Positions 1-11,477 of a DNA stretch of 11,477 bases are shown here, in pieces. How positions within the stretch are numbered: the stretch's first letter is position 1; each line of letters begins with the position of its first letter. Under the pieces are notes generated by a model that was given only the letters and a program-made list of their open reading frames with translations, had not been told where the DNA came from and searched no databases. Position numbers and translations under genes: made by a program. The stretch spans positions 1-11,477 of the forward strand of contig CATKFT010000139.1 of NCBI GenBank assembly GCA_949747745.1, in the 5' to 3' direction. This stretch comes from an uncultured Clostridia bacterium (GTDB lineage Bacteria > Bacillota_A > Clostridia > TANB77 > CAG-508).

Positions 1-29
1 AAAATTGTTGACAAAAAACGAGAATTATG

Positions 30-58
30 TTTACAAAATGGATAAAAAATAGTATAAT
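30..58 (+). promoter_or_regulatory. SigA-type promoter for the cohesin/dockerin unit
   Basis: A -35 box TTTACA (30-35) and a perfect -10 box TATAAT (53-58) are separated by exactly 17 bases. Transcription would start near 65, leaving a leader of about 30 bases before the ATG at 96. The leader carries a strong ribosome binding site, AGGGAGG at 82-88, seven bases before the start. This probably drives both 96-1259 and 1277-5407, because no other good promoter lies between them. Confidence 0.8.
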
Positions 59-95
59 ATAACTGTCTCGAATTTGTTTTTAGGGAGGAAGAATA

Positions 96-1259
96 ATGAA
101 AAAATCGTTAGCAATTACAATCATTATGATTTTTATTATAGGAATATACAGTAGTGTAGTAAATGCTGCTGCAAGTGCAACAGCCTCAGCTAAAACTACT
201 AAAGCAGGAGATACTGTAACTGTAACAGTATCATTTGGGAAAAAGGTAAAAGCAGGGCAATTTACATTAAATTTTGATTCAAGTGCATTAGAATATCTTT
301 CATATTCTTGTGGAGGAACAGGACGTAGTAACTTTAATGGAAGCCAATTTGGATATTTTATGGCTACAACACCAGATGTGTCAAGTGTTTCTTTTACATT
401 TAAAGCAAAAGGTACAAGCACTAAATCAGTAACAGCAAGTAATATGAAAATATCAACTGATACAGAAACAACACCAACACCTACAGTATCAATATCTGTA
501 AAAAGTAATACAACAAATAATACAAATAAACCAAATAATACAAAAAAACCAAATAATACAAAAAAACCAACTACAACATCAAAGGATGAAAAGCCAGAAC
601 CAGCACCAGATGAACTAATAAAATTAGACAATAAAGATGTTAAAACTCTAAAAGATGATGAAACTAATATTATGGTTAAAGGTATAGAAGTAGCAATTGA
701 AGATGGCGTAATATTAGAAGTAAAAGCTATAAATGAAGATGAAGAGAATTATGAGAAATTAGAAAAAATACTAAAAGATATAGATGGTAATAAAACATAT
801 TTTGATATTAATTTGTTAAAAGATAGTGTTAAAGTACAACCAAATGGATATGTGACAGTTTGTATACCAATTCCAGAGGAAAGTAAAGAGGAAAATGTTA
901 AAATATATTATTTAGATGAAGAAAATGAGAAATATGAATTAGTAGAAGGAGAAATACAAACATTAAAAAAGGAAATTACACAGGAAGGACAAACAGAAGA
1001 AGTAGAAGAAAAATACTATACTTTTACAACTGATCATTTTTCTATATATGCTTTAGTAGAAGAAAAAGAAGTAGAAAATGAACCAGAAGATACACAAGTA
1101 GTTGCACCAATTGAAGAAACAAAAGTAGAACAAAAAGATATGATGCAAATGGTATTAGAATTTTTGAAAGATCCAATTGTTTTATGTGTTATAATTGTAA
1201 TTTTACTTATTATTGTTATTATACAAAGAATAAAAATTAGTGGACAAAAAGCTGAATAG
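96..1259 (+). CDS. Membrane-anchored surface protein with a cohesin-like domain
   Basis: A 387-residue secreted protein that should sit on the outer face of the cytoplasmic membrane. In order: signal peptide (about 1-24, cleavage near VNAA); a cohesin-like beta-sandwich (about 25-135) with the family pattern KAGDTVTVTVSF, then FTLNFDSSALEYLS, then a closing SFTFKAKG strand; a low-complexity linker of NNTKKP-type repeats (141-158) and acidic/proline residues; a second domain (about 174-325) with the pattern GYVTVCIPIPE, KIYYLDEENEKYELVEG and YYTFTTDHFSIYALVE, common in clostridial surface proteins; and a C-terminal membrane helix (about 357-376) with a short basic tail. There is no LPXTG motif. 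Cohesins bind dockerins, so this is a candidate anchoring receptor for the dockerin proteins encoded at 1277, 7432 and 8393. The next gene starts 17 bases after this stop, which suggests an operon. Topology is clear; the cohesin call rests on pattern only, and another Ig-like fold is possible. Confidence 0.75.
   Translation: MKKSLAITIIMIFIIGIYSSVVNAAASATASAKTTKAGDTVTVTVSFGKKVKAGQFTLNFDSSALEYLSYSCGGTGRSNFNGSQFGYFMATTPDVSSVSFTFKAKGTSTKSVTASNMKISTDTETTPTPTVSISVKSNTTNNTNKPNNTKKPNNTKKPTTTSKDEKPEPAPDELIKLDNKDVKTLKDDETNIMVKGIEVAIEDGVILEVKAINEDEENYEKLEKILKDIDGNKTYFDINLLKDSVKVQPNGYVTVCIPIPEESKEENVKIYYLDEENEKYELVEGEIQTLKKEITQEGQTEEVEEKYYTFTTDHFSIYALVEEKEVENEPEDTQVVAPIEETKVEQKDMMQMVLEFLKDPIVLCVIIVILLIIVIIQRIKISGQKAE
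516..569 (+). repeat. Three 18-bp tandem repeats in the linker of the cohesin protein
   Basis: Three 18-base units encode NNTNKP, NNTKKP and NNTKKP (residues 141-158). The last two units each contain a run of seven A. The product is a flexible, asparagine/threonine/lysine/proline-rich spacer between the cohesin-like domain and the membrane-proximal domain. Unit number could change by slippage and alter how far the binding domain stands off the membrane. Confidence 0.85.
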
Positions 1260-1276
1260 GATATGGAGGTGAAGAA

Positions 1277-4200
1277 ATGAAAAAGTTTAAAAAAGTAATT
1301 TTATTAGGAATAGCCTTAATGATTATAGGAATATTTTGGTTAACAAGTGGAATTACTGAAAATTTACTAAAGGATGAAGTTACAGGGAAGATTCAAGCAT
1401 ATAATCATAATCCAAGTAATGTTTTAGAAAATGTATTTGAAAAAGATGGAAAAACTATTTTACCATTTATTTTTGAGAATTCTAAAAATACAATAACAAA
1501 GCTTTATATTATGGAACAATTTGAAGCAAAAGGACTTAAAATTGAAAATGGAGAAGAGCTTGGAGATATTATTGTAACAGGAGATATAATAAAAACAGAT
1601 TCAAAAGAATATCATGTTTTAATTTATGGAGATGTAAATAAAGATGGAGAAGTTGACGTAATGGATGCTGATTTTGTCTTTAGATATTATTTTAATGAAG
1701 AGAACTATAAATTAGAAGATGTTTATAAAATTGCAGGAAATGTTTCTAATGAAGATAATGACGTAGATGTAATAGATGCTCAAAGAATATTTGAATTTTA
1801 TTTTGGATTTGAAACAAGATTGGTTATTAATGAGCCAGATTCTTCAAAAATACCAGAAGAACCAGATGAGCCTGAAAAACCAGAAATTAAAGCACCAGAA
1901 ATTATGTTAAAAGGAGAAAATCCACAAACAATTAAGATTGGTCAATATATAGAATTAGGAGCAACAGCTAAAGATTATGAAGGTAAAACTTTAGAAGTGA
2001 AAATTGATTCTTCATCAATTAAAGATGAAGAAGGAGAATATACAGTTATTTATACAGCTGTAGATGATAAGGGACAAGAAACAATTGTTACAAGAAAAGT
2101 TAAAGTTATAGACTATGTAACAGGTATAATTGCAGAAACTGCAAAAGTACAATATGAATATGGAGAAAATTTAGATAGTAGTAAAATTAGTGTAAAAGAG
2201 ATTATGAAATCTGGAAAAGAGGGTGCAGCTTTAAATGCTTCACAATATAAAATAAGTGATTATGATCCAAATAAATCAGGTATACAAACTCTTAAAGTAA
2301 CATATGAAACAAATAATACATCTGATGATACTTTAAAAACATTTGAAGATACAATAACACTTATAGTTAAACCAGAACAAGAAGATCCAGATGCACCAGA
2401 AATTACATTAAAAGGGGATAACCCACAAACAATTAAATTAGGTAAATATGTTGAATTAGGAGCAACAGCTAAAGATTTTGAGGGTAATGAAATACCACAG
2501 TCAAATATAAAAATTGATATAAGCGGAATTAAGGATAGACCAGGAGAATATGAAGTTATTTATACAGCTGTAGATAATAACGGAAAAGTAGCGATAAAAA
2601 CAAGAACAGTAATTGTTGAAGATTATGTAGATGGAATAAGAGCTACAGCTACAAAACTAGAATATCAATATGGAGAAAAGTTAGATATTAGTAAAATTGT
2701 AGTAAAAGAGGCTATGAAATCTGGAAAAGATGGTAAAACATTAAATTCTTCACAATATAAAATAAGTAAGTATGATCCAACAAAGGTTGGAGCGCAAACT
2801 CTTACAGTAAAATATACAACAACTAATACTATAGATGGTAGTGAAAAAACATTTGAAGATACAATTGTACTTATAGTTAAACCAGAGCCTAAAGCACCAG
2901 AGATTACTCTAAAAGGAGCAAATCCTCAAACAATAAAAATAGGACAGTATATAGAATTAGGAGCAAGTGCTAAAGACTATGCTGGTGATGAAATACCACA
3001 AACAAGTATAAAAATTGATAAAAGTGCAATAAAAGATGAACCAGGAGAATATGAAGTTGTTTACACAGTTGAAGATAAAACTACAGGAAAGAAGACTACT
3101 ATAAAAAGAAAAGTTATAGTACAAGATTATGTAGAAGGAATAACTATATCAACTACAAAATCTGAATATCAATATGGTGAAGACTTAGATACTAGCAAAA
3201 TTGTAGTAAAAGAAGTTATGAAATCTAAAAAAGAAGGACTAGTAATAGATTCTTCAAAATACATAATTTTAGGTAACTATGATCCAAATAAAGTTGGTGT
3301 GCAAACAATAAAAATAGCTTATACAACAACTAATACAGTTGACGATACATCAAAGACTTTTGAAGGGGAACTTAATGTAACAGTTAAAGAACCTGTATTA
3401 AAAGTAAATGATGGAACAAAGGATATAACAAATATTACATTATATACTAAACAAATGCCAGGTAATAATTATATAGATGTAGATGCTTTAGGAAATGTAT
3501 ATACATTAATTCCAATTGCTTTAGAAAAATATCAAGGAACTGTGGAAATAACAGCTGATGATATTGTAACTAAAAAAACAGAGGGAAAAATAAGTATAAT
3601 AGATAATAAAGTAGATACTAATGTATCACTAACTTCACAAATTTTAGTTAAAACATATAAAAAATCTACCAATAATACATTTACAGAAATTACAGATAGC
3701 ACTACTGGAAGTAAAGAAATAGATTATATAGGAATAGCAATAAATAAAAATGTAATAAGTAGCCCAGAAGCAATAGAATATATAAAACTTTATTATGGAA
3801 ATGCTACAGATGCTAGTGTAACATTAATGGTTAATTCAAAAATAACAAAAACAAATTTAGATGAATTATCAAATATTCAAATAACAGTTAACCAAGAAAC
3901 TAAAAAGTCACTTGTATTTTATAGTGGAGAAGAAGAAGTTACTGTAGTTGCAAGAAGAGTTACATTAACACAAGTTAATGGGATGGAGGTAGAATTGTTA
4001 GACAAAAATGGTGGAATAATTGATGCAAATATAACTCCAGAAGAGCCAGTAAAATCTATTTCAATAAAAGTTACACAAGAAATAGGGGGAACAAAACAAT
4101 TAGAATTAATAGTAGATGGTGCATATGCAAATAAAAAATATGTTATGAATAAAACAGTTAATGTATCATTACCAAGAATTGAAGTAAAAGATGGAGGAAA

Positions 4201-5407
4201 AGACATTACAGAAATTATGCTTTATACAAAAAGACCAACGAATTCTACTTTAGTACAAACAGGAATTGCAGAAGAAGATGGAAAAGAACATATATATACA
4301 TTAATTCCAGTTTCTTTAATGGGCAATGAAGGAAAAATTACAATAACACAACCTGATATAGATTACTATAAAACACAAGGAAAAATAAGTGTAATAGATA
4401 GTAACTTAGATGAAGATGATAATAATACATCAGCATTATTAATAAAAACATATAAAAAGGCATCAAATGGAACATATGCAGAAGTTACAAGTAATAGTTC
4501 AGGAAATAAAGAAATAGACTATATAGGAATAGCAGTAGATTTAGACTATGTAAATAGTCCAGAAGATTTAGAATATATAAAACTTTACTATGGAAATTCT
4601 AGTGATGCTGGTGCAACTTTAGTTGTTAATCCAAAAGTAACAAAAACAAATTTTGATGAAATGGGAAATATTGAAGTGACAGCTAACCAAGAAAGAAAAG
4701 TTGATATAGCATTTTATAATAAAGAAGCTCAAATTGATATTCCTGCAAGAAGAATTACAGTTACAAAAAATGCTAACATAGAAGTAGAGTTGTTGGATAA
4801 AGTTGGAGGATTAATAGATGTTACTACAAATCCAGAAGAGCCAGTAAAAGCTATAAGTATAAAAGCAACAAAATCAAATGATAATAACTTAGAACTTATA
4901 ATAGATAGTTCAAGTGAAAATAGAAAATATATACTTAATAAAACAATAGATATTTTATCACCAGAAATAGAAGTGAATGATGGAACAAATGATATTACTG
5001 ATATTACATTATATACACAAAAACCAGCTGATAATGAACTTGTACAAGTAGGAGAAGATGATGGATATATATATACACTAATACCAATATCTGTAATAGG
5101 AAAAGAAGGAAAAATGCCAATATCATTTAGTGATATAGATTATTATAAAACTGAAGGAAAGATAAGTGTAATAGATGATAAACTAAATGATGGTGCAGAT
5201 GATCCAGCTTTATACCTAAAAGGATACCATAAAACAACAGAACAAGGAAAAGTTAAATATAAGGATGTTACAGAAACAAATACTGAAATAGACTACATAG
5301 GAATTGCTATGGATACAACAATACAAGGTTCAGATAGTTTAAAATATATTTATATCTATTATGGAACTGATAATAATTATAGTGTTAGATTAAACGTTAA
5401 TTATTAA
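1277..5407 (+). CDS. Large surface protein: N-terminal dockerin, Ig-like repeats and a second repeat array
   Basis: A 1376-residue exported protein; the start is fixed by GGAGGTG at 1265-1271. In order: an N-terminal hydrophobic segment (about 5-26) with no clear cleavage site, so it may stay as an anchor; a short module (about 40-115); a dockerin (about 118-176); a proline/glutamate linker (185-205); three 167-residue units at 206, 373 and 540, each made of an Ig-like DUF5011-type domain (PEITLKG..PQTIK.G.Y.ELGA, then GEYEVIYTA) followed by a Big_3-like domain (EYQYGE.LD.SKI, then YDP.K.G.QTL); then a second repeat type starting at 706, 966 and 1229, the last only 148 residues long. Dockerin loop 1 is good (D119, N121, D123, D127, D130). 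Loop 2 (155-167) is degenerate, with one extra residue and Asn or Val at the first ligand position. No catalytic domain is visible. A likely role is a rod or adhesin docked to a cohesin, perhaps the one encoded just upstream. The second repeat type is not recognised. Confidence 0.85.
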   Translation: MKKFKKVILLGIALMIIGIFWLTSGITENLLKDEVTGKIQAYNHNPSNVLENVFEKDGKTILPFIFENSKNTITKLYIMEQFEAKGLKIENGEELGDIIVTGDIIKTDSKEYHVLIYGDVNKDGEVDVMDADFVFRYYFNEENYKLEDVYKIAGNVSNEDNDVDVIDAQRIFEFYFGFETRLVINEPDSSKIPEEPDEPEKPEIKAPEIMLKGENPQTIKIGQYIELGATAKDYEGKTLEVKIDSSSIKDEEGEYTVIYTAVDDKGQETIVTRKVKVIDYVTGIIAETAKVQYEYGENLDSSKISVKEIMKSGKEGAALNASQYKISDYDPNKSGIQTLKVTYETNNTSDDTLKTFEDTITLIVKPEQEDPDAPEITLKGDNPQTIKLGKYVELGATAKDFEGNEIPQSNIKIDISGIKDRPGEYEVIYTAVDNNGKVAIKTRTVIVEDYVDGIRATATKLEYQYGEKLDISKIVVKEAMKSGKDGKTLNSSQYKISKYDPTKVGAQTLTVKYTTTNTIDGSEKTFEDTIVLIVKPEPKAPEITLKGANPQTIKIGQYIELGASAKDYAGDEIPQTSIKIDKSAIKDEPGEYEVVYTVEDKTTGKKTTIKRKVIVQDYVEGITISTTKSEYQYGEDLDTSKIVVKEVMKSKKEGLVIDSSKYIILGNYDPNKVGVQTIKIAYTTTNTVDDTSKTFEGELNVTVKEPVLKVNDGTKDITNITLYTKQMPGNNYIDVDALGNVYTLIPIALEKYQGTVEITADDIVTKKTEGKISIIDNKVDTNVSLTSQILVKTYKKSTNNTFTEITDSTTGSKEIDYIGIAINKNVISSPEAIEYIKLYYGNATDASVTLMVNSKITKTNLDELSNIQITVNQETKKSLVFYSGEEEVTVVARRVTLTQVNGMEVELLDKNGGIIDANITPEEPVKSISIKVTQEIGGTKQLELIVDGAYANKKYVMNKTVNVSLPRIEVKDGGKDITEIMLYTKRPTNSTLVQTGIAEEDGKEHIYTLIPVSLMGNEGKITITQPDIDYYKTQGKISVIDSNLDEDDNNTSALLIKTYKKASNGTYAEVTSNSSGNKEIDYIGIAVDLDYVNSPEDLEYIKLYYGNSSDAGATLVVNPKVTKTNFDEMGNIEVTANQERKVDIAFYNKEAQIDIPARRITVTKNANIEVELLDKVGGLIDVTTNPEEPVKAISIKATKSNDNNLELIIDSSSENRKYILNKTIDILSPEIEVNDGTNDITDITLYTQKPADNELVQVGEDDGYIYTLIPISVIGKEGKMPISFSDIDYYKTEGKISVIDDKLNDGADDPALYLKGYHKTTEQGKVKYKDVTETNTEIDYIGIAMDTTIQGSDSLKYIYIYYGTDNNYSVRLNVNY
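1892..3391 (+). repeat. Three tandem ~501-bp repeats encoding Ig-like domain pairs
   Basis: Units start at 1892, 2393 and 2894, a spacing of exactly 501 bases (167 codons) each time. Each encodes a DUF5011-type Ig-like domain followed by a Big_3-like domain. Units 2 and 3 share the segment EIPQ before the IKID strand, which unit 1 lacks, so units 2 and 3 look like the more recent duplicates. Such arrays usually form stiff rods and can change length by homologous recombination. Confidence 0.85.
3392..5404 (+). repeat. Two and a half ~785-bp repeats encoding an unrecognised two-part module
   Basis: Units start at 3392, 4172 and 4961 (residues 706, 966, 1229). Each begins with P.(I/L).V.DG..DIT.I.LYT, continues through YTLIP, GKIS.ID and EIDYIGIA, and reaches YIKLYYGN. 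This first part is about 150 residues. Units 1 and 2 then carry a second part of about 110 residues with KTN.DE..NI, ARR.T.T, PEEPVK.ISIK and a closing KY..NKT. Unit 3 stops at the end of the first part, just before the gene stop, giving an X-Y-X-Y-X layout. I cannot assign either part to a named family. Confidence 0.8.
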
Positions 5408-5442
5408 TAAAATACTCCGTATTATATTGTTTACAAAGTAAT

Positions 5443-5502
5443 AAAATCACCTTAATTCTATATAATTATAATAGTAAATTATATAGAAAAAGGTGATTTT
5501 TT
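5443..5502 (+). terminator. Long hairpin plus T run: terminator that overlaps the next gene's ribosome binding site
   Basis: The outer arms 5443-5453 and 5490-5500 are perfect 11-base complements (AAAATCACCTT / AAGGTGATTTT). The inner arms 5458-5467 and 5477-5486 are perfect 10-base complements (CTATATAATT / AATTATATAG). Only a small internal bulge separates them, and the loop is 9 bases. A run of six T (5497-5502) closes the structure, as in a Rho-independent terminator for the gene ending at 5407. The AAGGTG at 5490-5495, the only ribosome binding site available to the ATG at 5503, is paired inside the 3' arm. Folding would therefore also block translation of the downstream gene. The low GC content of the stem lowers confidence in strong termination. 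Confidence 0.7.
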
Positions 5503-7285
5503 ATGCTTCAAACAGCAAATATAAGTAGAAAAAGAAGAATGATATATTCTTTATTCATAGCATTTATAATACTTAGCCTATTAGTAGTAAGAATAGGCTA
5601 TATCCAATTTATACAAGGAGACGAATTACAAACAATGGCATATAAACAGCAATCAATAGATAGAAGAATAAATCCAAAAAGAGGAACAATATATGATGCT
5701 ACAGGAAAAAATGTACTTGCAATAAGTGCTACAGTAGAAACAATTACAGTAAACCCTGTAAATATAAAAAAAGAAGATAAAGAAAAAGTAGCAAAAGCGT
5801 TTAGTGATATATTTGAACTAGATTATGAAAAAATGTTAAAAAAAGTAACCAAAAAAAGTTCAATAGAGACAATAGTAAAAAAAGTAGATAAAGATAAAAC
5901 AGATAAATTACGTATATGGATGAAAGAAAATAATATAACATCTGGAATAAATATAGATGAAGATACAAAAAGGTACTATCCTCAAAATGAGCTTGCATCG
6001 CATTTTATAGGTTTTTGTGGAAGCGATAACCAAGGATTAGATGGAATAGAGGCAAAATTTGAAGAAATTTTAAAAGGAAGTCCACGGAAAAATTATAAGA
6101 GTAACAGATGCAAAAGGTGGAGAAATAGGTAAAGAAGGAGAAAACTATATTTCAGCAGTAAATGGAAAAGATATAGTAACATCAATTGATATGACAATAC
6201 AGTCAATAGCAGAAAAACATTTAAAACAAGCATGTATAGATAATGTATGTACAGATGGAGGAAATATAGTAATAATGAACCCAAAAACTGGAGATATACT
6301 AGCAATGGCAACATATCCATCATATAACTTGAATACACCATATGAAATAACAGATGAAACGTTAAAAGAAAACTGGGAGAACTTAACTGCTACTGAAAGA
6401 AGTACAAATTTGCAAGCAATGTGGAGGAATAAAGCAATAGCTGATACATATGAACCAGGTTCTACATTTAAAACAATAACTTCTTCAGCTGCATTACAAG
6501 AAGGAATAACAACTACAGATAAGGAGGGAGAATTTTGTTGTACTGGTGCAATAGAAATTGCAGGAGTACGTATAAAATGTTGGAGACATTATAGACCACA
6601 TGGTTCTGAATCGTTAAGACAAGGATTAATGAATTCATGTAATCCAGTATTTATTGGATTAGGACAAAAAATAGGAGTAAGAAAATATTATGAATATTTA
6701 AACAAATTTGGTTTTCTATCAAAAACAGAAATAGAATTACCAGGAGAAGCAAAAGGAATATTCTTAAAAGAAGAAAAAGTAGGACCAGTAGAACTTGCAA
6801 CAATTGCATTTGGGCAAAGGTTTGAAGTAACACCTCTTCAAATGGTAACAGCAGTATCTGCAATTGCAAATAAGGGAGTAAGAATGAAGCCAAGGGTAGT
6901 AAAACAAATAATAAATTCAGAAACAGGAGAAAAAGAAGATTTAGAACCAATAAAAGTACAAAGAGTAATAGATGAAAAAACAGCAAATGATGTACTTAGC
7001 ATGATGGAAAGCGTTGTAGCAGAAGGGACAGGAAAAAATGCTAGTGTTGCAGGTTTTAGAGTAGGAGGAAAAACAGGGACATCAGAAGACCGGAGTAAAT
7101 ACAAATAAATATGTAACATCGTTTATAGGAGTTGCACCAATATCAGACCCAGAACTAGTATGTCTTGTAACTTTATATAATCCAACAGGAGAGGGGGGAC
7201 ACCATGTAGGTGTCTTTTTATTGAGGTTATTTACGGATACTTAGAAAATAAGATTTGTAGTATAGAGAATGAAAAGAAAATGTAA
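5503..7285 (+). pseudogene. Class B penicillin-binding protein (SpoVD/PBP2-like), broken by frameshifts
   Basis: The gene encodes a membrane-bound D,D-transpeptidase that cross-links peptidoglycan. Piece 1 (5503-6085) has a membrane helix (about 14-34) and the dimerisation-domain motif RRINPKRGTIYDATGKN. Piece 2 (6086-7090, next frame) carries the transpeptidase domain with all three catalytic motifs: STFK (6461-6472), SCN (6635-6643) and KTG (7070-7078). Piece 3 (7092-7204, third frame) reads VTSFIGVAPI and NPTGEGGHH, the expected continuation. Removing one C near 6085 restores GSPGKIIRVTDAKGG; removing one C at 7090/7091 restores TSEDGVNTNKYV. After GGHH the usual C-terminal stretch is lost or scrambled. 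A remnant IEVIYGYLENK (7220-7252) reappears in another frame and stops at 7283-7285. No PASTA domain is seen. The intact ancestor would be about 580-590 residues, normal for the family. The motifs are preserved, so decay is recent or the indels are assembly errors. SpoVD versus a division PBP cannot be settled here. Confidence 0.85.
7198..7219 (+). terminator. Candidate terminator hairpin inside the decayed end of the penicillin-binding protein gene
   Basis: GACACC (7198-7203) and GGTGTC (7209-7214) are perfect complements around a five-base loop ATGTA, followed directly by five T. The G run upstream can extend the stem with G-U pairs. The left arm lies in what was coding sequence (the GGHH codons), so the structure may be a by-product of the deletion that damaged this end. 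It has the shape of a Rho-independent terminator and would separate this gene from the one at 7432. Confidence 0.45.
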
Positions 7286-7431
7286 TATAAAAACAACAAT
7301 AGTGAAAAAGTAAGAAAGCGTAAACAAATATAATAATGTGTAATAAAATATTAAAATAGGAATATTGAAAAGGAAAACAAATTATTGTATACTTATAGTA
7401 AGTGAGTATTTTTTAAAAGGTGGAAAGTAAT
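7286..7431 (+). promoter_or_regulatory. Intergenic region with SigA-type promoter for the 7432 gene
   Basis: This AT-rich spacer holds a -35 box TTGAAA (7365-7370) and a -10 box TATACT (7388-7393) with a 17-base gap, predicting a start near 7400. The ribosome binding site AAAAGGTGG (7414-7422) then lies nine bases before the ATG at 7432. The first 75 bases or so show nothing I can interpret. The promoter means the downstream pair of genes can be expressed independently of the 96-5407 unit. Confidence 0.7.
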
Positions 7432-8376
7432 ATGAAATTAAAAAAATTAGTATGTGCTGTTATATGCACTATATTTGTAATTGTAATTTTAATAACAATA
7501 AATGTACAAGCATCAAATAGCTTAAAAGCTACTGTACAAACTTCAAAAGAAGAAGTAGAAAAGGAAGAAGAGATAGAAATTACATTAAAATTAGAAGAAT
7601 ATCAAGACATTAAAAATGGAATTAATGCCTATAAAGCAATTTTATACTATGATGAAGATACATTTGAAGAAGTGCTTGAACAAAATTTTATATGTAAAAA
7701 CAATTGGGAACTTCTAAAATATAATAAAGATACAAAAGAATTTATTGCTATAAAAAAAGCTGGAAGCAAAGCTCCTGAAGAAGTGGCAAGTATTACTTTG
7801 AAAACAAAAAAAGAAGTAGAACCAAAAACAACAGAGATTAAAATTAAAGATATTGTTACATCAGATGGAAAAACAGATATTAATGTAGATGAAGCAAAAC
7901 TAACAATTAATGTTATTAAAGAACAAGGAGAAATACCAGGAGAGCCAGAAAAAACAGAAAAAATTACATCTGATAAGTATAAAATAGAACAAGGATATAT
8001 AGGAAGAATACTACCTAGAACAACAGTTAGTCAATTTAAACAAAATGTAACAGTAGAAAATGTAACAACAAATCCACAAATGATGTTTATAGACGAAAGC
8101 GGAGAAGTATTACAAGAAGATAGTTTAATTAAAACTGGTACAAAATTAAAAGTAGGTTCTAGTTTACAATATACTCTTATTGTAACAGGAGATATAGATG
8201 GAGATTCAAGTATTACAATAAACGATTTAGCTTCTATAAGATTACATCTTATATCAATAAAATTATTAACAGGGATAGAACTAAAAGCAGCAGATATGGA
8301 TGCTGACAATCAAGTTACTGTAAATGATTTAGCAAATATGAAATTAATATTAATAGGTTTATTAGAATTAAAATAA
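7432..8376 (+). CDS. Secreted adaptor-like protein with cohesin-like domain and C-terminal dockerin
   Basis: A 314-residue exported protein. In order: signal peptide (about 1-27, NVQA then SNS); a cohesin-like beta-sandwich (about 28-165) with EEVEKEEEIEITLKL, then YKAILYYDEDTFEEV, then VASITLKTKKE and a final INV strand; a short linker with GEIPGEPEKTEK; a small module (about 178-250) starting SDKYKIEQGYIGRI; and a dockerin (about 253-314) with loops D-I-D-G-D...D and D-M-D-A-D...D. Both loops keep the calcium ligands at positions 1, 3, 5 and 12, each followed by a helix. A chain with one cohesin and one dockerin can bridge two partners, as adaptor scaffoldins do. I chose ATG 7432 rather than GTG 7420 because that GTG lies inside the AAAAGGTGG ribosome binding site. 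The next gene starts 17 bases after this stop, so the two are probably co-transcribed. The dockerin is clear; the cohesin-like call is weaker. Confidence 0.8.
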   Translation: MKLKKLVCAVICTIFVIVILITINVQASNSLKATVQTSKEEVEKEEEIEITLKLEEYQDIKNGINAYKAILYYDEDTFEEVLEQNFICKNNWELLKYNKDTKEFIAIKKAGSKAPEEVASITLKTKKEVEPKTTEIKIKDIVTSDGKTDINVDEAKLTINVIKEQGEIPGEPEKTEKITSDKYKIEQGYIGRILPRTTVSQFKQNVTVENVTTNPQMMFIDESGEVLQEDSLIKTGTKLKVGSSLQYTLIVTGDIDGDSSITINDLASIRLHLISIKLLTGIELKAADMDADNQVTVNDLANMKLILIGLLELK

Positions 8377-8392
8377 AAGGGAGTGAAAATAA

Positions 8393-11300
8393 ATGCAAAA
8401 AATTATAGATATTGTAAAAGTAAAAAAAAGATTAGCAATATCAATAAGTATTTTTATAGTAATGTTTATATTTATATCTTTTGGTGTAATTTATGCAAGC
8501 AATGTTAATAAAGGAGAGTTAAATGGAGATGGAGAAATAAATTACGCAGATGTTAGTTTACTAGAATTGTATTTAATTCATTTAAGAGAAATACCAGAAG
8601 ATAAATTAAAAAATGCAGATATGAATAATGATGGAGAGGTTACAGTAACAGATTTAACACTTTTAATAAGGAAAATAGAAAAAACATTAGATTATGAAGT
8701 GGAAATGAGAAATATTAAAGCAAGTAATTATTATCCAAAAAAGGAAGAAGAAATAAAATTAAGTTTTGACCTTGATGTAAGTTATGGAGAAAATGTAAAA
8801 ACAATTACTGTAAATGGAAACGAATATGAAGTAACAAAAAATGAAACAGATGAAAACCAATATGAAATTACAGTAAATGTAGGAGAAACAAGTGGAGTAA
8901 AAGAATATAGATTTGAAAAAGTAACTTTAGAAAATGAAAGAGATGTTTTTGTTGATTATTTAGTTAAAATAGATGTATTAAAACAAGAACCAACGATTGC
9001 AAATTGGAAAGTGACAGAAGACATACAAAAATCAGAATTAAATATATCTTTTGACATTTTTGATCCAGATTCTGCATTTGAATCAGGAACATATAAAATT
9101 TTAGAAAAACAAGAAGATACTGAGACCGTAGAAGAGAATGTAGATTATATAAAAACAGGAACTTTAGAAAATGGTAATAATAATATAAATGTAAAAGTAG
9201 AAGAAGGAAAAAACTATAAAATTGAGTTATGTATAGAACATGACTTAGATACAGATTCTTTAGGACAAGAAGAAGATAATAAAGGATTTACAATAGAAGA
9301 GAAAAACTTAAGTCTTATTATAGATTATGAATTTGAGTTATCTGAGATAAAAACTTATAGACATAAAGAACAAGAAGAAGAACAAACAGAACAATTCTAT
9401 ATAGGAGAACATATATTATTAAAATTTAATAGTACAAATAAAACACAACATGTGCCACAAAAAGTAGTTGTAAATGGAAAACAATATGACTTGACAAGTG
9501 AAAATAACACATATGCAGTATTATTAGATGGATTTAATAGTGCAGGAACACATACAATTAATATAGAAAAAGTTATCTTAGATAATAGTAAGGAGATTGA
9601 AGTAAACCAAAATACACAAGTGAAATTAATAAAAAATATACCAACAGTTGCAAGATTTAGAAGTAATGAAAATGTAGAACAAAAAAATATTAGTATGCTT
9701 ATTTTTATAAAAGACAAAGATAAAGCAATAACTGATTTAACTGCAAAGATACTTGATGAAGATAATAATGAAATTGCATCTAAAAATTTAACACAATATT
9801 TAAGAGATGAAAATTTAAGTGATAGTGAAGAAGTAGAACTACAAGATACATACTTTATAAATGCAGAGATAGATTTAGGAACTACAAAATTACCAGATAG
9901 ATATAAAATAAGATTGGTTGCAAGTTATTGTTTATTTGAAAATGATGAAAATTATACATATACAAATGAGACTATAGCTGAAAATGAAGCTTCTTCTACA
10001 CCAGTTGTTAATATAAATAATGTACAAGTATCTAACAAATATCCAGAAAAGGGAGAGAATATTACATTAACATATGAAATAGAAACAAATAAGGAAGATA
10101 CTGAAATAACACATATTATGGTAAATAATTTAAGATGTATAGCAACAAAACATATAGGTGATAATGAAGATGTAACATATTCAGTAACTCTAAATGCTGG
10201 AGAAAAAGCAGGGACATTAAATTTAAATACTACAGATGTTATATTTGAAGGGAATGTAGCAGTTGGTGTAATGAATCAAGTAATGGTAGATGTTTTAAAA
10301 GATATACCTACTAGTGAAGCATTTACACAAGTAGATGATATAGAAAATAAATCAGTTACTTTAACAGCTCATATAATAGACAATGATAAAGCTTTAATTA
10401 GAGGAAGAGCTGAGTTAATTAGAAATAGTGACAACAAAGTAATAGATACTAAACAATTTGATGCTGACCATATTACATTTAAAATAGAAGGACTAGAGCT
10501 AAATACAGAATATACACTAGTTGCAAAAATGACATATGATAGAGATACAAATACAATAGAAGAACAAATAAACCAAAATTATGTGGAAGATGAGATATTT
10601 AGAAGAAGACCAATTCAATTAATTGCAGATTATGAGTTAGAAATAAGCAACTTAAAAACATATAATGGAGAAAAAGAAACAAAATATTTTGAAAGAGGAC
10701 AAGAAGTAACTGTAAGTTTCGATAGTGCTAATAGAACAGAATTCTATCCAGTATATGCTATTATAAATGGAAAACAATATGAATTAGAAAAATTAGAACA
10801 AAATTATAAAACTAAAATACCAGTAGTTTCTACATTTGGTCCTAAAACAATTACAATTGAAAAAATAATTCTAAATAATACAAAAGAAATTGAATTAATG
10901 GAAAATAATGAAACACAAGTAGGAATATTAAAACTAAGACCAACTGTTACAAATTTTGGATACAGAGAAAATGAAAATAATACAAGTATTGATGTAGAAT
11001 TTACAGTAAATGATCCAGAAGATGCAATAACAGATGGAACTATAAGAGTATTAAATGAAAATGGAGATAAAATAAAGGAAGAAAAATTAACTAAAACTTC
11101 AAATACAATTAGTTTTGAAAAAGGAATTTGTGAAGAATTTGAAATACAAATATTTGCAGATTATGACTTAGACACAAATCAAATTACAACAGGAGATAAT
11201 GAATATGAAAACCAACAATTACTTAAAGAAGGAATTAATATAAGTCAAGAAAGATTTATTGAAATAAAAGATATAATTGGGGTAAGTCTATATTCAAAAG

Positions 11301-11477
11301 AAAATCCAACAGTAGAAGTTACTAATATAACAGAAGAAAACTTATCTAATTTAGATAATTACATAGTAAAAGTTAGAACAAAAGAAATGCCTTTATTTTA
11401 CACTAAAATAAAAAGTTATGAAATAACAGAAGACGAAAAATTAAACTTCATTTTAGATTATGATAATGTAATTCAAT
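8393..11477 (+). CDS. Giant dockerin-bearing repeat protein, 3' end outside the window
   Basis: An open frame of 1028 codons with no stop before the window edge. The ATG is preceded by AAGGGAGTG (8377-8385), seven bases upstream. In order: basic N terminus and hydrophobic segment (about 14-35, ending VIYAS), a signal peptide or anchor; a dockerin (41-96) with loops E-L-N-G-D-G-E-I-N...D and D-M-N-N-D-G-E-V-T...D; then four repeats of about 210 residues beginning near 105, 315, 537 and 748; and from about 960 a new segment containing DNYIVKVRTKEMPLFYTKIKSYE and FILDYDN. The repeats alternate beta-rich segments with VNGKQY and IEKVIL.N.KEIE motifs. No catalytic motif is visible. The last segment loosely recalls repeat regions in clostridial proteins annotated as ZmpA/B/C metallo-endopeptidase-related; that is a memory-based impression, not a match. 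A role as surface fibre or adhesin docked to a cohesin is likely. Any enzyme domain would be in the missing part. Confidence 0.8.
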   Translation, partial: MQKIIDIVKVKKRLAISISIFIVMFIFISFGVIYASNVNKGELNGDGEINYADVSLLELYLIHLREIPEDKLKNADMNNDGEVTVTDLTLLIRKIEKTLDYEVEMRNIKASNYYPKKEEEIKLSFDLDVSYGENVKTITVNGNEYEVTKNETDENQYEITVNVGETSGVKEYRFEKVTLENERDVFVDYLVKIDVLKQEPTIANWKVTEDIQKSELNISFDIFDPDSAFESGTYKILEKQEDTETVEENVDYIKTGTLENGNNNINVKVEEGKNYKIELCIEHDLDTDSLGQEEDNKGFTIEEKNLSLIIDYEFELSEIKTYRHKEQEEEQTEQFYIGEHILLKFNSTNKTQHVPQKVVVNGKQYDLTSENNTYAVLLDGFNSAGTHTINIEKVILDNSKEIEVNQNTQVKLIKNIPTVARFRSNENVEQKNISMLIFIKDKDKAITDLTAKILDEDNNEIASKNLTQYLRDENLSDSEEVELQDTYFINAEIDLGTTKLPDRYKIRLVASYCLFENDENYTYTNETIAENEASSTPVVNINNVQVSNKYPEKGENITLTYEIETNKEDTEITHIMVNNLRCIATKHIGDNEDVTYSVTLNAGEKAGTLNLNTTDVIFEGNVAVGVMNQVMVDVLKDIPTSEAFTQVDDIENKSVTLTAHIIDNDKALIRGRAELIRNSDNKVIDTKQFDADHITFKIEGLELNTEYTLVAKMTYDRDTNTIEEQINQNYVEDEIFRRRPIQLIADYELEISNLKTYNGEKETKYFERGQEVTVSFDSANRTEFYPVYAIINGKQYELEKLEQNYKTKIPVVSTFGPKTITIEKIILNNTKEIELMENNETQVGILKLRPTVTNFGYRENENNTSIDVEFTVNDPEDAITDGTIRVLNENGDKIKEEKLTKTSNTISFEKGICEEFEIQIFADYDLDTNQITTGDNEYENQQLLKEGINISQERFIEIKDIIGVSLYSKENPTVEVTNITEENLSNLDNYIVKVRTKEMPLFYTKIKSYEITEDEKLNFILDYDNVIQ
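8705..11269 (+). repeat. Four divergent ~210-residue repeats
   Basis: Units begin near 8705, 9335, 10001 and 10634. Units 2 and 4 are the most alike: SEIKTY / SNLKTY, NGKQYDL / NGKQYEL, IEKVILDNSKEIE / IEKIILNNTKEIE, PTVARF / PTVTNF, and a K.DKAITD / NDPEDAITD strand. Units 1, 3 and 4 end with a D.DT-type motif (EHDLDTDS, TYDRDTNT, DYDLDTNQ), which is worn away in unit 2. Divergence between units is high, so the array is old. The family is not one I can name with confidence. Confidence 0.75.

What the first reader, a model, noticed from the sequence alone, without database searches (positions are those of the whole stretch)
96..11477. A cohesin-dockerin surface locus with no visible enzyme
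All four intact genes carry cohesin-like (96, 7432) or dockerin (1277, 7432, 8393) modules, and everything else in them looks structural: Ig-like repeats, linkers, membrane anchors. Classical cellulosome loci pair scaffoldins with glycoside hydrolases. Here the parts would give an anchored receptor, an adaptor and two long docked rods, meaning a modular adhesin or cell-surface scaffold rather than a degradative complex. The modules are seen by pattern; the assembly is inferred.
Basis: partly seen in the sequence, partly recalled or inferred. Interest (0 to 1): 0.7.

Follow-up and report, generated by a model that had tools for sequence, protein, structure and literature searches.

The report
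Cohesin-clasped gut bacterial surface protease
The locus is probably not enzyme-free: its last gene, cut off by the end of the window, is in a near-identical relative the start of a very large protein-cutting enzyme that appears to be held on the cell surface by a snap-fastener pair (cohesin and dockerin), a pair that relatives encode either as two neighbouring genes or within one long protein.

Summary
The modules are real: cohesins in 96-1259 and 7432-8376, dockerins in 1277-5407 (weak), 7432-8376 and 8393-. "No visible enzyme" comes from the window's end. In relative G001 (2 mismatches in 3085 bases over the visible part) the last gene encodes 2651 residues: dockerin, Ig-like repeats, then an M26 zinc metallopeptidase (IgA1-protease/Zmp family) with HExxH. 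The window stops about 75 residues into the M26 region.

In 41 of 42 related loci the 7432-type cohesin is followed by, or fused to, this protease's dockerin (27 two-gene, 14 one-ORF; one cut inside the cohesin). M26 follows in 33 of the 41; 7 end too early; one (L033) lacks it. The fused form reads signal peptide, cohesin, membrane hairpin, dockerin, protease; a wider search found 77 fused among 94 proteins. I infer that the cohesin clasps the dockerin and holds the enzyme on the cell after cleavage behind the hairpin. AlphaFold2 agrees weakly (pTM 0.69, against 0.45 for the adaptor with its own dockerin). Binding is untested. Genes 96 and 1277 look like a second couple, with no enzyme seen.

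New variant of a known kind: non-cellulosomal cohesin-dockerin display of an M26 protease.

The parts
96..1259 (+). gene 1: signal peptide, cohesin (about 168-515), T/N/P-rich linker, conserved C-terminal domain, hydrophobic membrane anchor (about 1140-1247); anchored monovalent cohesin
1277..5407 (+). gene 2: signal peptide, X-like region (by eye) plus weak dockerin near the N-terminus (about 1625-1780), alternating PF16403 and Big_3 Ig-like domains, three further repeats of unknown fold; probable partner of gene 1
   Evidence: 17 nt after gene 1
5503..7230 (+). SpoVD/PBP2-like gene, represented over its full length but in three reading frames: a broken copy about 80% identical in DNA to the intact one of G001
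7432..8376 (+). gene 3 (adaptor): signal peptide, cohesin (about 7513-7917), X module (about 7963-8178), C-terminal dockerin (about 8179-8373)
8393..11476 (+). gene 4, cut by the window end: signal peptide, N-terminal dockerin (about 8504-8692), Ig-like repeats, first about 75 residues of the M26 peptidase region (from about 11249). The homologue in G001 is 2651 aa with HEFEH at 1870

Best explanation
The 7432/8393 couple is a surface-display device for a giant M26-type zinc metallopeptidase. The cohesin of the small protein (7432) clasps the dockerin that sits just behind the signal peptide of the protease (8393), so that the secreted enzyme is held at the cell non-covalently. The small protein's own C-terminal X-dockerin is of another type and would plug into a further, anchored cohesin. 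Other lineages encode the same two halves in one ORF: signal peptide, cohesin, (LPxTG in some) membrane hairpin, dockerin, protease. There the second hydrophobic helix ends like a signal-peptide cleavage site, so a cut would free the protease, and the cohesin left on the anchor would catch its dockerin. Genes 96 and 1277 are a second couple of the same grammar: a membrane-anchored cohesin followed by a rod with an N-terminal dockerin. Shown by sequence: the modules, the M26 identity with intact active-site residues in relatives, the recurrent pairing, the fused form, the hairpin. Inferred: M26 in the window's own strain (from near-identity), binding, partner choice, cleavage, surface location, substrate (host or diet glycoprotein; IgA not shown).
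For: (1) The visible part of gene 4 differs from G001's 2651-aa M26 protein at 2 of 3085 bases; that protein scores PF05342 157.6 bits, NCBIfam ZmpB 155 bits (that model's cut-off is 3000), PF07580 59.7 bits for its catalytic part, and aligns with solved IgA1 proteases from residue 953 on, E 2.5e-27 to 2e-30. (2) Pairing: of 42 loci found with the adaptor alignment alone, 41 have the protease-type dockerin next or in the same ORF (27 split, 14 fused), and the other ends inside the cohesin; M26 sequence follows in the same ORF in 33 of the 41, 7 reach the locus end first, 1 (L033) has none. (3) Fusion: also 77 of 94 proteins found with a fused N-terminus; X and adaptor dockerin are absent in the 14 fused loci. 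(4) Topology: exactly two hydrophobic segments between the modules in 89 of 91 fused rows (77 proteins plus 14 loci, partly the same proteins); loop net positive in 81 of 89; small-x-small site before the dockerin in 82 of 89. (5) AlphaFold2: cohesin plus protease dockerin pTM 0.69, dockerin pLDDT blocks 84-91; adaptor with its own dockerin pTM 0.45, dockerin blocks 43-73. (6) HExxH and a Glu 18 residues after its second His in 125 of 125 distinct M26 rows long enough to align. (7) 12 M26 genes in 10 of 117 family genomes: 8 have a visible N-terminus, all 8 with cohesin and dockerin (two dockerins recognised by eye, one gene spread over two contigs).
Against: No binding, cleavage or localisation was measured. 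pTM is an indirect sign of docking: no PAE or coordinates were returned, and the two AlphaFold2 runs had different proteins and alignments (14 and 28 rows). Recurrent neighbourhood and fusion also fit a purely structural or folding role. L033 keeps cohesin, hairpin, dockerin (73 bits, weaker than most) and Ig-like parts in a 1157-residue ORF with no M26 match in it or the next 3 kb, so the clasp need not carry a protease. In 17 of 94 proteins the dockerin-M26 protein has no cohesin of its own, and their neighbours were not seen as such; one of them (P0260) keeps signal peptide, LPKTG, hairpin and dockerin but no cohesin. That search was led by a fused query, limited to 0.55-1.75 times the query's length and to the candidates sharing most words, so 77 of 94 is not a frequency. 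Only 15 of 77 fused proteins have an LPxTG between cohesin and dockerin. The window's own gene 4 was not read past residue 1028. The anchor that would receive the adaptor's dockerin is not identified.
Confidence: 0.7

Rival explanations
1. Enzyme-free modular adhesin or surface scaffold: anchored cohesin, adaptor and two docked rods.
For: Gene 2 has only Ig-like and unknown repeats and no enzyme match. In the relative, dockerins also sit on giant SpaA-repeat rods. L033 is a fused relative without M26.
Against: Gene 4 continues into an M26 peptidase with intact active-site residues in a relative that differs at 2 of 3085 bases.
Confidence: 0.1
2. Part of a mucinolysome or cellulosome-like multi-enzyme complex, in which many dockerin enzymes share polyvalent scaffoldins.
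For: Dockerin proteins with enzyme-like parts of several kinds exist in the relative. Mucinolysomes with dockerin-bearing peptidases are published for Limousia (PMC12997984, abstract and passages).
Against: The 8 cohesin matches of G001 at E up to 0.001 lie in 8 different ORFs, one each: no polyvalent scaffoldin seen. Dockerin sequences fall by eye into several types, not one shared type. The family scans of the 9 dockerin ORFs named no plant-polysaccharide glycosidase outside the dockerin itself (Pfam and NCBIfam for some, Pfam alone for others; the G001 adaptor was judged from the window's near-identical copy).
Confidence: 0.1
3. Cohesin and dockerin travel together but do not bind each other: the cohesin receives another protein and the dockerin serves another receptor; co-inheritance is only operon linkage.
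For: No binding data. Several other cohesins and dockerins exist in the genome. Dockerin-M26 proteins without their own cohesin exist.
Against: The same two modules stay together while what lies between them changes from an operon boundary to a membrane hairpin. Split and fused forms need at least 2 changes (31 locus rows) or 6 (125-row FastTree, labels on 118) on M26 trees; long branches make both uncertain. AlphaFold2 contrast.
Confidence: 0.14
4. The window is a mis-assembly and the neighbourhood of genes 1-2 with genes 3-4 is not real.
For: Bases 1-5477 have no DNA match at the G001 locus, 5500-7250 match at only about 73-85% per bin, and the match is 98.8-100% from there on; the SpoVD-like gene between is broken.
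Against: Split SpoVD copies also lie just before the adaptor in L008, L009 and L010 (closely related loci), and one ORF further up in L006, so a relic near this place is recurrent. It would not touch the reading of genes 3-4, which are adjacent in G001 too.
Confidence: 0.06

Closest known systems
M26 metallopeptidases of Gram-positive cocci (IgA1 protease, ZmpA-D)
   Same: M26_N and M26_C regions, HExxH, N-terminal membrane hairpin. Two Enterococcus hirae Zmp proteins read here have hydrophobic segments at 122-141 and 149-167. PMC9637739 (passages) describes an N-terminal LPXTG and processing downstream of it.
   Different: Those two have YSIRK signals and G5 domains and no cohesin or dockerin by Pfam or five profiles (a strict LPxTG was not found in them either). 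Here a cohesin precedes and a dockerin follows the hairpin, or the two halves are separate genes.
Clostridium perfringens X82 cohesin and FIVAR-dockerin system (Adams 2008, recalled; cited in the passages of PMC12997984)
   Same: Monovalent, non-cellulosomal cohesins; the closest solved folds to the 7432 cohesin are these (2vo8, 2jh2, 2w1n).
   Different: There the cohesin is part of the glycosidase (passages); here it is a separate adaptor or the anchor half of the protease precursor.
Mucinolysome of Limousia (PMC12997984, abstract and passages)
   Same: Gut clostridia, dockerin-bearing peptidases, wall-anchored cohesin.
   Different: Polyvalent scaffoldins and many dockerin glycosidases there. 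The main text has no word beginning with M26 or IgA.
Cellulosome anchoring scaffoldins (OlpA, OlpC, SdbA) and X-dockerin adaptors (recalled)
   Same: Anchored single cohesins and X-dockerin dyads.
   Different: No cellulosomal enzymes and no repeated cohesins seen in G001.

Membership tests
Cohesin (PF00963) | cohesin beta-sandwich in 7432-8376 | tested here: met
Cohesin (PF00963) | cohesin domain in 96-1259 | tested here: met
   no Pfam match for the single sequence; family profile matches solved cohesins, E 7e-4; HHalign 97.3% to the 7432 family
Dockerin type I (PF00404) | dockerin profile match in 7432-8376 and 8393- | tested here: met
   28.5 and 45.8 bits
Dockerin type I (PF00404) | same, in 1277-5407 | tested here: inconclusive
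   15.3 bits, below 22.9; second loop is one residue longer
M26 metallopeptidase (IgA1 protease/Zmp) | M26_N and M26_C regions with HExxH and downstream Glu, in the full-length homologue of gene 4 | tested here: met
   (G001 protein; the window holds only the first about 75 residues of the region)
M26 metallopeptidase (IgA1 protease/Zmp) | cleavage of IgA1 | not testable with these tools
   no assay; substrate unknown
M26 metallopeptidase (IgA1 protease/Zmp) | N-terminal LPXTG, hairpin and G5 domain (the canonical layout) | tested here: not met
   no G5 match in G001 gene 4 or in L029; the two-gene protease has one hydrophobic segment; fused relatives have two (89 of 91) and LPxTG in 15 of 77. 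An M26 protein of another architecture
Cellulosome | polyvalent scaffoldin and dockerin-bearing plant-polysaccharide hydrolases | tested here: not met
   8 cohesins in 8 ORFs, 9 dockerin ORFs without a plant-polysaccharide glycosidase match in G001, a MAG that may be incomplete
Cohesin-dockerin couple | high-affinity calcium-dependent binding of 7432 cohesin to 8393 dockerin | not testable with these tools
   indirect: pairing, fusion, pTM contrast

The most novel reading that the evidence does not exclude
A subfamily of M26 proteases made as a self-clasping precursor: cohesin and dockerin lie on the two outer ends of a membrane hairpin in one chain, signal peptidase cuts behind the hairpin, and the anchored cohesin then holds the freed protease by its dockerin. 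In other lineages the same clasp is made by two separate genes, extended by an X-dockerin adaptor. This would be, as far as my searches show, the first cohesin-dockerin pair used in cis to retain a processed surface protease, and would give a concrete mechanism for how N-terminally processed M26 enzymes can stay on cells.
Probability: 0.55. Interest if true: 0.82.

Novelty: new variant of a known kind. Interest (0 to 1): 0.68.

Why it matters
It turns an apparently enzyme-free locus into a surface protease system. Cohesin-dockerin pairs are known mainly from plant-fibre and glycan machines; here one pair appears dedicated to a single giant peptidase of the IgA1-protease family in gut bacteria, in interchangeable one-gene and two-gene forms. 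The fused form names the likely cognate partners without any binding screen, and offers a testable answer to how M26 proteases stay attached after N-terminal processing. It also shows that a window edge can create a false 'structural only' reading.

Tried and rejected
Search of the window's own genome: none held; the closest relative G001 was used instead. Around-the-active-site search of solved structures gave only a chance match; the whole-protein search gave IgA1 proteases. Gene 2's C-terminal repeats: no Pfam match to window 4028-5404, none in the PDB sequence search of window 3386-5404. Catalytic nature of the G001 NPCBM/CBM32 dockerin protein: no Pfam match above cut-off for its residues 184-830; the transglutaminase-like pattern is by eye only. 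Plasmid carriage of the C. perfringens form: no plasmid record covers 80% of it; 9 records have partial matches below 60% identity, 6 of them Enterococcus. Enzyme-free adhesin, cellulosome or mucinolysome, chance neighbourhood: see rivals. Class and phylum samples with PF07580: 2 of 391 and 2 of 398 genomes; this Pfam model scores the clade weakly (56.9 bits for G001), so these are low counts. In the class sample the second genome, G211, is the source of L019 (split form) and L041 (fused form), so one genome holds both. The M26 gene of the second genome in the phylum sample (G784, 831 bits) was not read further. The 31-row tree left out 5 of 36 locus rows whose N-terminus was missing. The 125-row tree came from 136 proteins with a match, 130 long enough, 125 distinct; labels were set on 118, and for rows of the protein collection 'split' means only a dockerin near the start and no cohesin. 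In print: of nine paper searches, those with 'dockerin' showed no title or abstract beginning about a dockerin-bearing M26 protease; searches list only 15 of 44 and 12 of 21 papers; the papers listed were not opened. Searches were about the N-terminal LPXTG of IgA1 protease.
Full report

THE MISSING ENZYME. The contig CAOJKP010000001.1 (L001; a MAG titled uncultured Clostridium sp.; genome handle G001) matches the window from 7250 to the end at 98.8-100% per 250-base bin: 7 mismatches in the 945 bases of gene 3 and 2 in the 3085 bases of gene 4. In G001 gene 4 runs for 2651 residues. It scores PF05342 at 157.6 bits, NCBIfam ZmpB at 155 bits against a cut-off of 3000, and PF07580 at 59.7 bits for its catalytic part given alone (the whole protein did not list PF07580). 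It aligns from residue 953 on with four solved IgA1-protease chains (E 2.5e-27 to 2e-30). Its HEFEH lies at residue 1870. The window's last about 75 residues already belong to the aligned region. 'No visible enzyme' is thus, most likely, an effect of where the window ends; the window's own strain was not read further.

THE PAIR RECURS. A scan of one genome per species with the gene-3 alignment alone returned 42 loci. In 27 of them (L001-L027) a gene-3 homologue is followed by an ORF with the gene-4 dockerin. In 14 (L028-L041) the cohesin and that dockerin are in the same ORF. In one (L042) the contig ends inside the cohesin. A recount shows M26 sequence in the same ORF behind the dockerin in 33 of these 41; in 7 (L004, L005, L008, L009, L017, L025, L032) the ORF reaches the locus end, within 60 bases, before M26; in one (L033) the fused ORF ends at 1157 residues with no M26 match in it or in the next 3 kb. 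L038 is spread over several ORFs. The 14 fused ORFs lack the X module and have only the protease-type dockerin. A search of the protein collection with a fused N-terminus gave 94 proteins: 77 hold cohesin and dockerin in one chain, 17 do not; all 94 rows list PF05342 and PF00404. That search admits only proteins of 0.55-1.75 times the query's length, so a short form like L033 could not appear. One fused protein is named Clostridium perfringens by its source (P0244). On M26 trees the two forms need at least 2 changes (31 locus rows) or 6 (125 rows by FastTree, 118 labelled); both trees have long branches that meet. One genome (G211) holds both forms.

TOPOLOGY OF THE FUSED FORM. Between cohesin and dockerin, 89 of 91 fused rows (77 proteins plus 14 loci, which overlap) have exactly two hydrophobic segments when close segments are merged; with less merging it was 72 of 77 proteins. 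The short loop between them is net positive in 81 of 89, and a small-x-small site precedes the dockerin in 82 of 89. An LPxTG lies between the modules in 15 of 77. By the positive-inside rule (established knowledge) the loop is cytoplasmic and both modules are outside. The N-terminus of the two-gene protease resembles the second helix of the hairpin (by eye). Two Enterococcus hirae Zmp proteins have the same hairpin (122-141, 149-167) but no cohesin or dockerin by any of five profiles, and G5 domains instead. On these two controls the hairpin looks like common M26 equipment, and the cohesin and dockerin are what is added on either side of it.

A COMPUTED TEST OF THE CLASP. The fused N-terminus of L030 (312 residues, 14 rows) folds with pTM 0.69, its dockerin blocks at pLDDT 84-91. 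The window's own adaptor (314 residues, 28 rows), which holds the cohesin with the other dockerin type, gives pTM 0.45, its dockerin blocks at 43-73. A cohesin of about 138 residues alone could not, by my estimate, give 0.69 in a chain of 312; the contrast fits docking of the protease dockerin and no docking of the adaptor's own. No PAE or coordinates were returned, so this is support, not proof. VIA-align's listed matches span only the cohesin part, and the Foldseek list gives no ranges but is headed by cohesins.

THE REST OF THE SYSTEM. G001 has 9 dockerin and 8 cohesin matches at E up to 0.001. Dockerins: the M26 protein; two proteins with a SagB-like glucosaminidase region, below that model's cut-off; a 2513-residue protein with NPCBM and three CBM32-type domains; two cohesin-dockerin adaptors; two giant rods of 4585 and 5365 residues with SpaA repeats; one 525-residue protein of unknown kind. 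The 8 cohesins lie one each in 8 ORFs. Two of the cohesin proteins have LPXTG-anchor matches just under the cut-off, and a third, C1:77827-78510, shows an LPxTG-like end by eye only; a sortase gene follows C1:72770. The family at large is rich in such modules: the gene-3 profile, cohesin or dockerin part, matches in 108 of 117 genomes, M26 in 10 of 117. Of the 12 M26 genes there, 8 have a visible N-terminus and all 8 have cohesin and dockerin: four split (G001, G082 twice, G019 across two contigs), two fused by profile or BLAST (G071, G083) and two fused by eye with a diverged dockerin (G076, G057); 4 are cut by contig ends (G033 twice, G061, G113).

GENES 1 AND 2. I fetched 9 chosen regions around gene-1-like matches; such matches were found in 34 of 59 genomes. 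Five show a cohesin gene followed by a gene with a dockerin near its N-terminus (L106, L107, L109, L113, L114; in L106 the cohesin was matched by gene 1 itself, not by the profile). Two have a weak C-terminal dockerin match (10-11 bits) in a neighbouring gene (L108, L112). Two have none (L110, L111). Genes 1 and 2 are 17 nt apart. I take them as a cohesin-dockerin couple of the same grammar; no enzyme was found in gene 2.

GENOMIC SETTING. In G001 the locus lies inside the division and cell-wall cluster: rsmH, ftsL-like, spoVD, adaptor, M26, recombinases and further surface genes, then murF, mraY, ftsW, murG (names by my reading of the ORFs and the comparisons; only the window's SpoVD pieces were put to a family search). 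G082 shows the rsmH-to-spoVD side followed by two adaptor-M26 units, and G033 shows murF-mraY-ftsW-murG beside an M26 gene. In the window the SpoVD-like gene is a broken copy about 80% identical to G001's, and bases 1-5477 have no DNA match at the G001 locus. So the window's strain carries extra genes ending in a SpoVD relic; SpoVD-like copies in two pieces stand just before the adaptor in L008, L009 and L010, and with one ORF between in L006. L001, L011, L013 and L017 have single-ORF copies upstream.

WHAT IS KNOWN. Canonical M26 IgA1 proteases have an N-terminal LPXTG, a G5 domain and the M26 region, and are processed downstream of the LPXTG (PMC9637739, passages). A review says pneumococcal IgA1 protease can split and recombine into an active protease (PMC7939560, passages). 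Bender and Weiser 2006 is recalled and was seen only in a reference list. The mucinolysome paper reports dockerin-bearing peptidases but its main text has no word beginning with M26 or IgA (PMC12997984, abstract and passages; its supplements were not seen). Passages of PMC5817068 and PMC6206940 gave background only. The seven searches with 'dockerin' listed no title or abstract beginning that describes a dockerin-bearing M26 protease; subscription journals are mostly not held, and two of the lists were cut.

VERDICT. The finding's modules are real; its central claim (no enzyme) is most likely not. What is there is a cohesin-dockerin display system for an M26 protease, in one-gene and two-gene forms, plus a second couple without known enzyme. 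New variant of a known kind.

Noticed in passing
window 5503-7230: SpoVD/PBP2-like gene present over its full length but in three reading frames; about 80% DNA identity to the intact G001 copy, with a sharp switch to 98.8-100% identity at about 7200-7250. SpoVD-like copies in two pieces also stand before the adaptor in L008, L009, L010 and, with one ORF between, in L006.
   Followed up: partly
L060-L063 (G001 C1:38214-83493), L102, L094: The adaptor-protease unit sits inside the division/cell-wall gene cluster between spoVD and murF in G001; G082 shows the rsmH-spoVD side and G033 the murF-murG side beside an M26 gene.
   Followed up: partly
L033:111-3584: Fused relative with cohesin, hairpin, dockerin and Ig-like parts but no M26 peptidase in the ORF or the next 3 kb: a natural enzyme-free form or a decayed copy.
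   Followed up: partly
L062:14516-16774 and L065:11285-12973: Two dockerin-bearing proteins with a SagB-like glucosaminidase region (below that model's cut-off) and an SH3 domain: possibly peptidoglycan hydrolases docked by cohesins.
   Followed up: no
L069:4246-11784 (G001 C1:56246-63787): 2513-residue protein with NPCBM, three CBM32-type domains and a C-terminal dockerin of the adaptor type; a transglutaminase-like pattern in its unmatched region by eye, no family match.
   Followed up: no
L070 and L071 (G001 C4:15509-31606, C4:33855-47612): Two giant surface proteins of 5365 and 4585 residues with SpaA repeats and a C-terminal dockerin, on the contig that also holds cohesin genes.
   Followed up: no
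L069:589-2145, 2072-2887, 14151-15767: Large serine recombinases in the same interval of the cell-wall cluster, possibly linked to the strain differences at this site.
   Followed up: no
P0260: M26 protein with signal peptide, LPKTG, membrane hairpin and dockerin but no cohesin: an intermediate between the fused form and canonical Zmp.
   Followed up: no
P0244: A Clostridium perfringens protein annotated as hypothetical has the fused cohesin-hairpin-dockerin-M26 architecture.
   Followed up: partly
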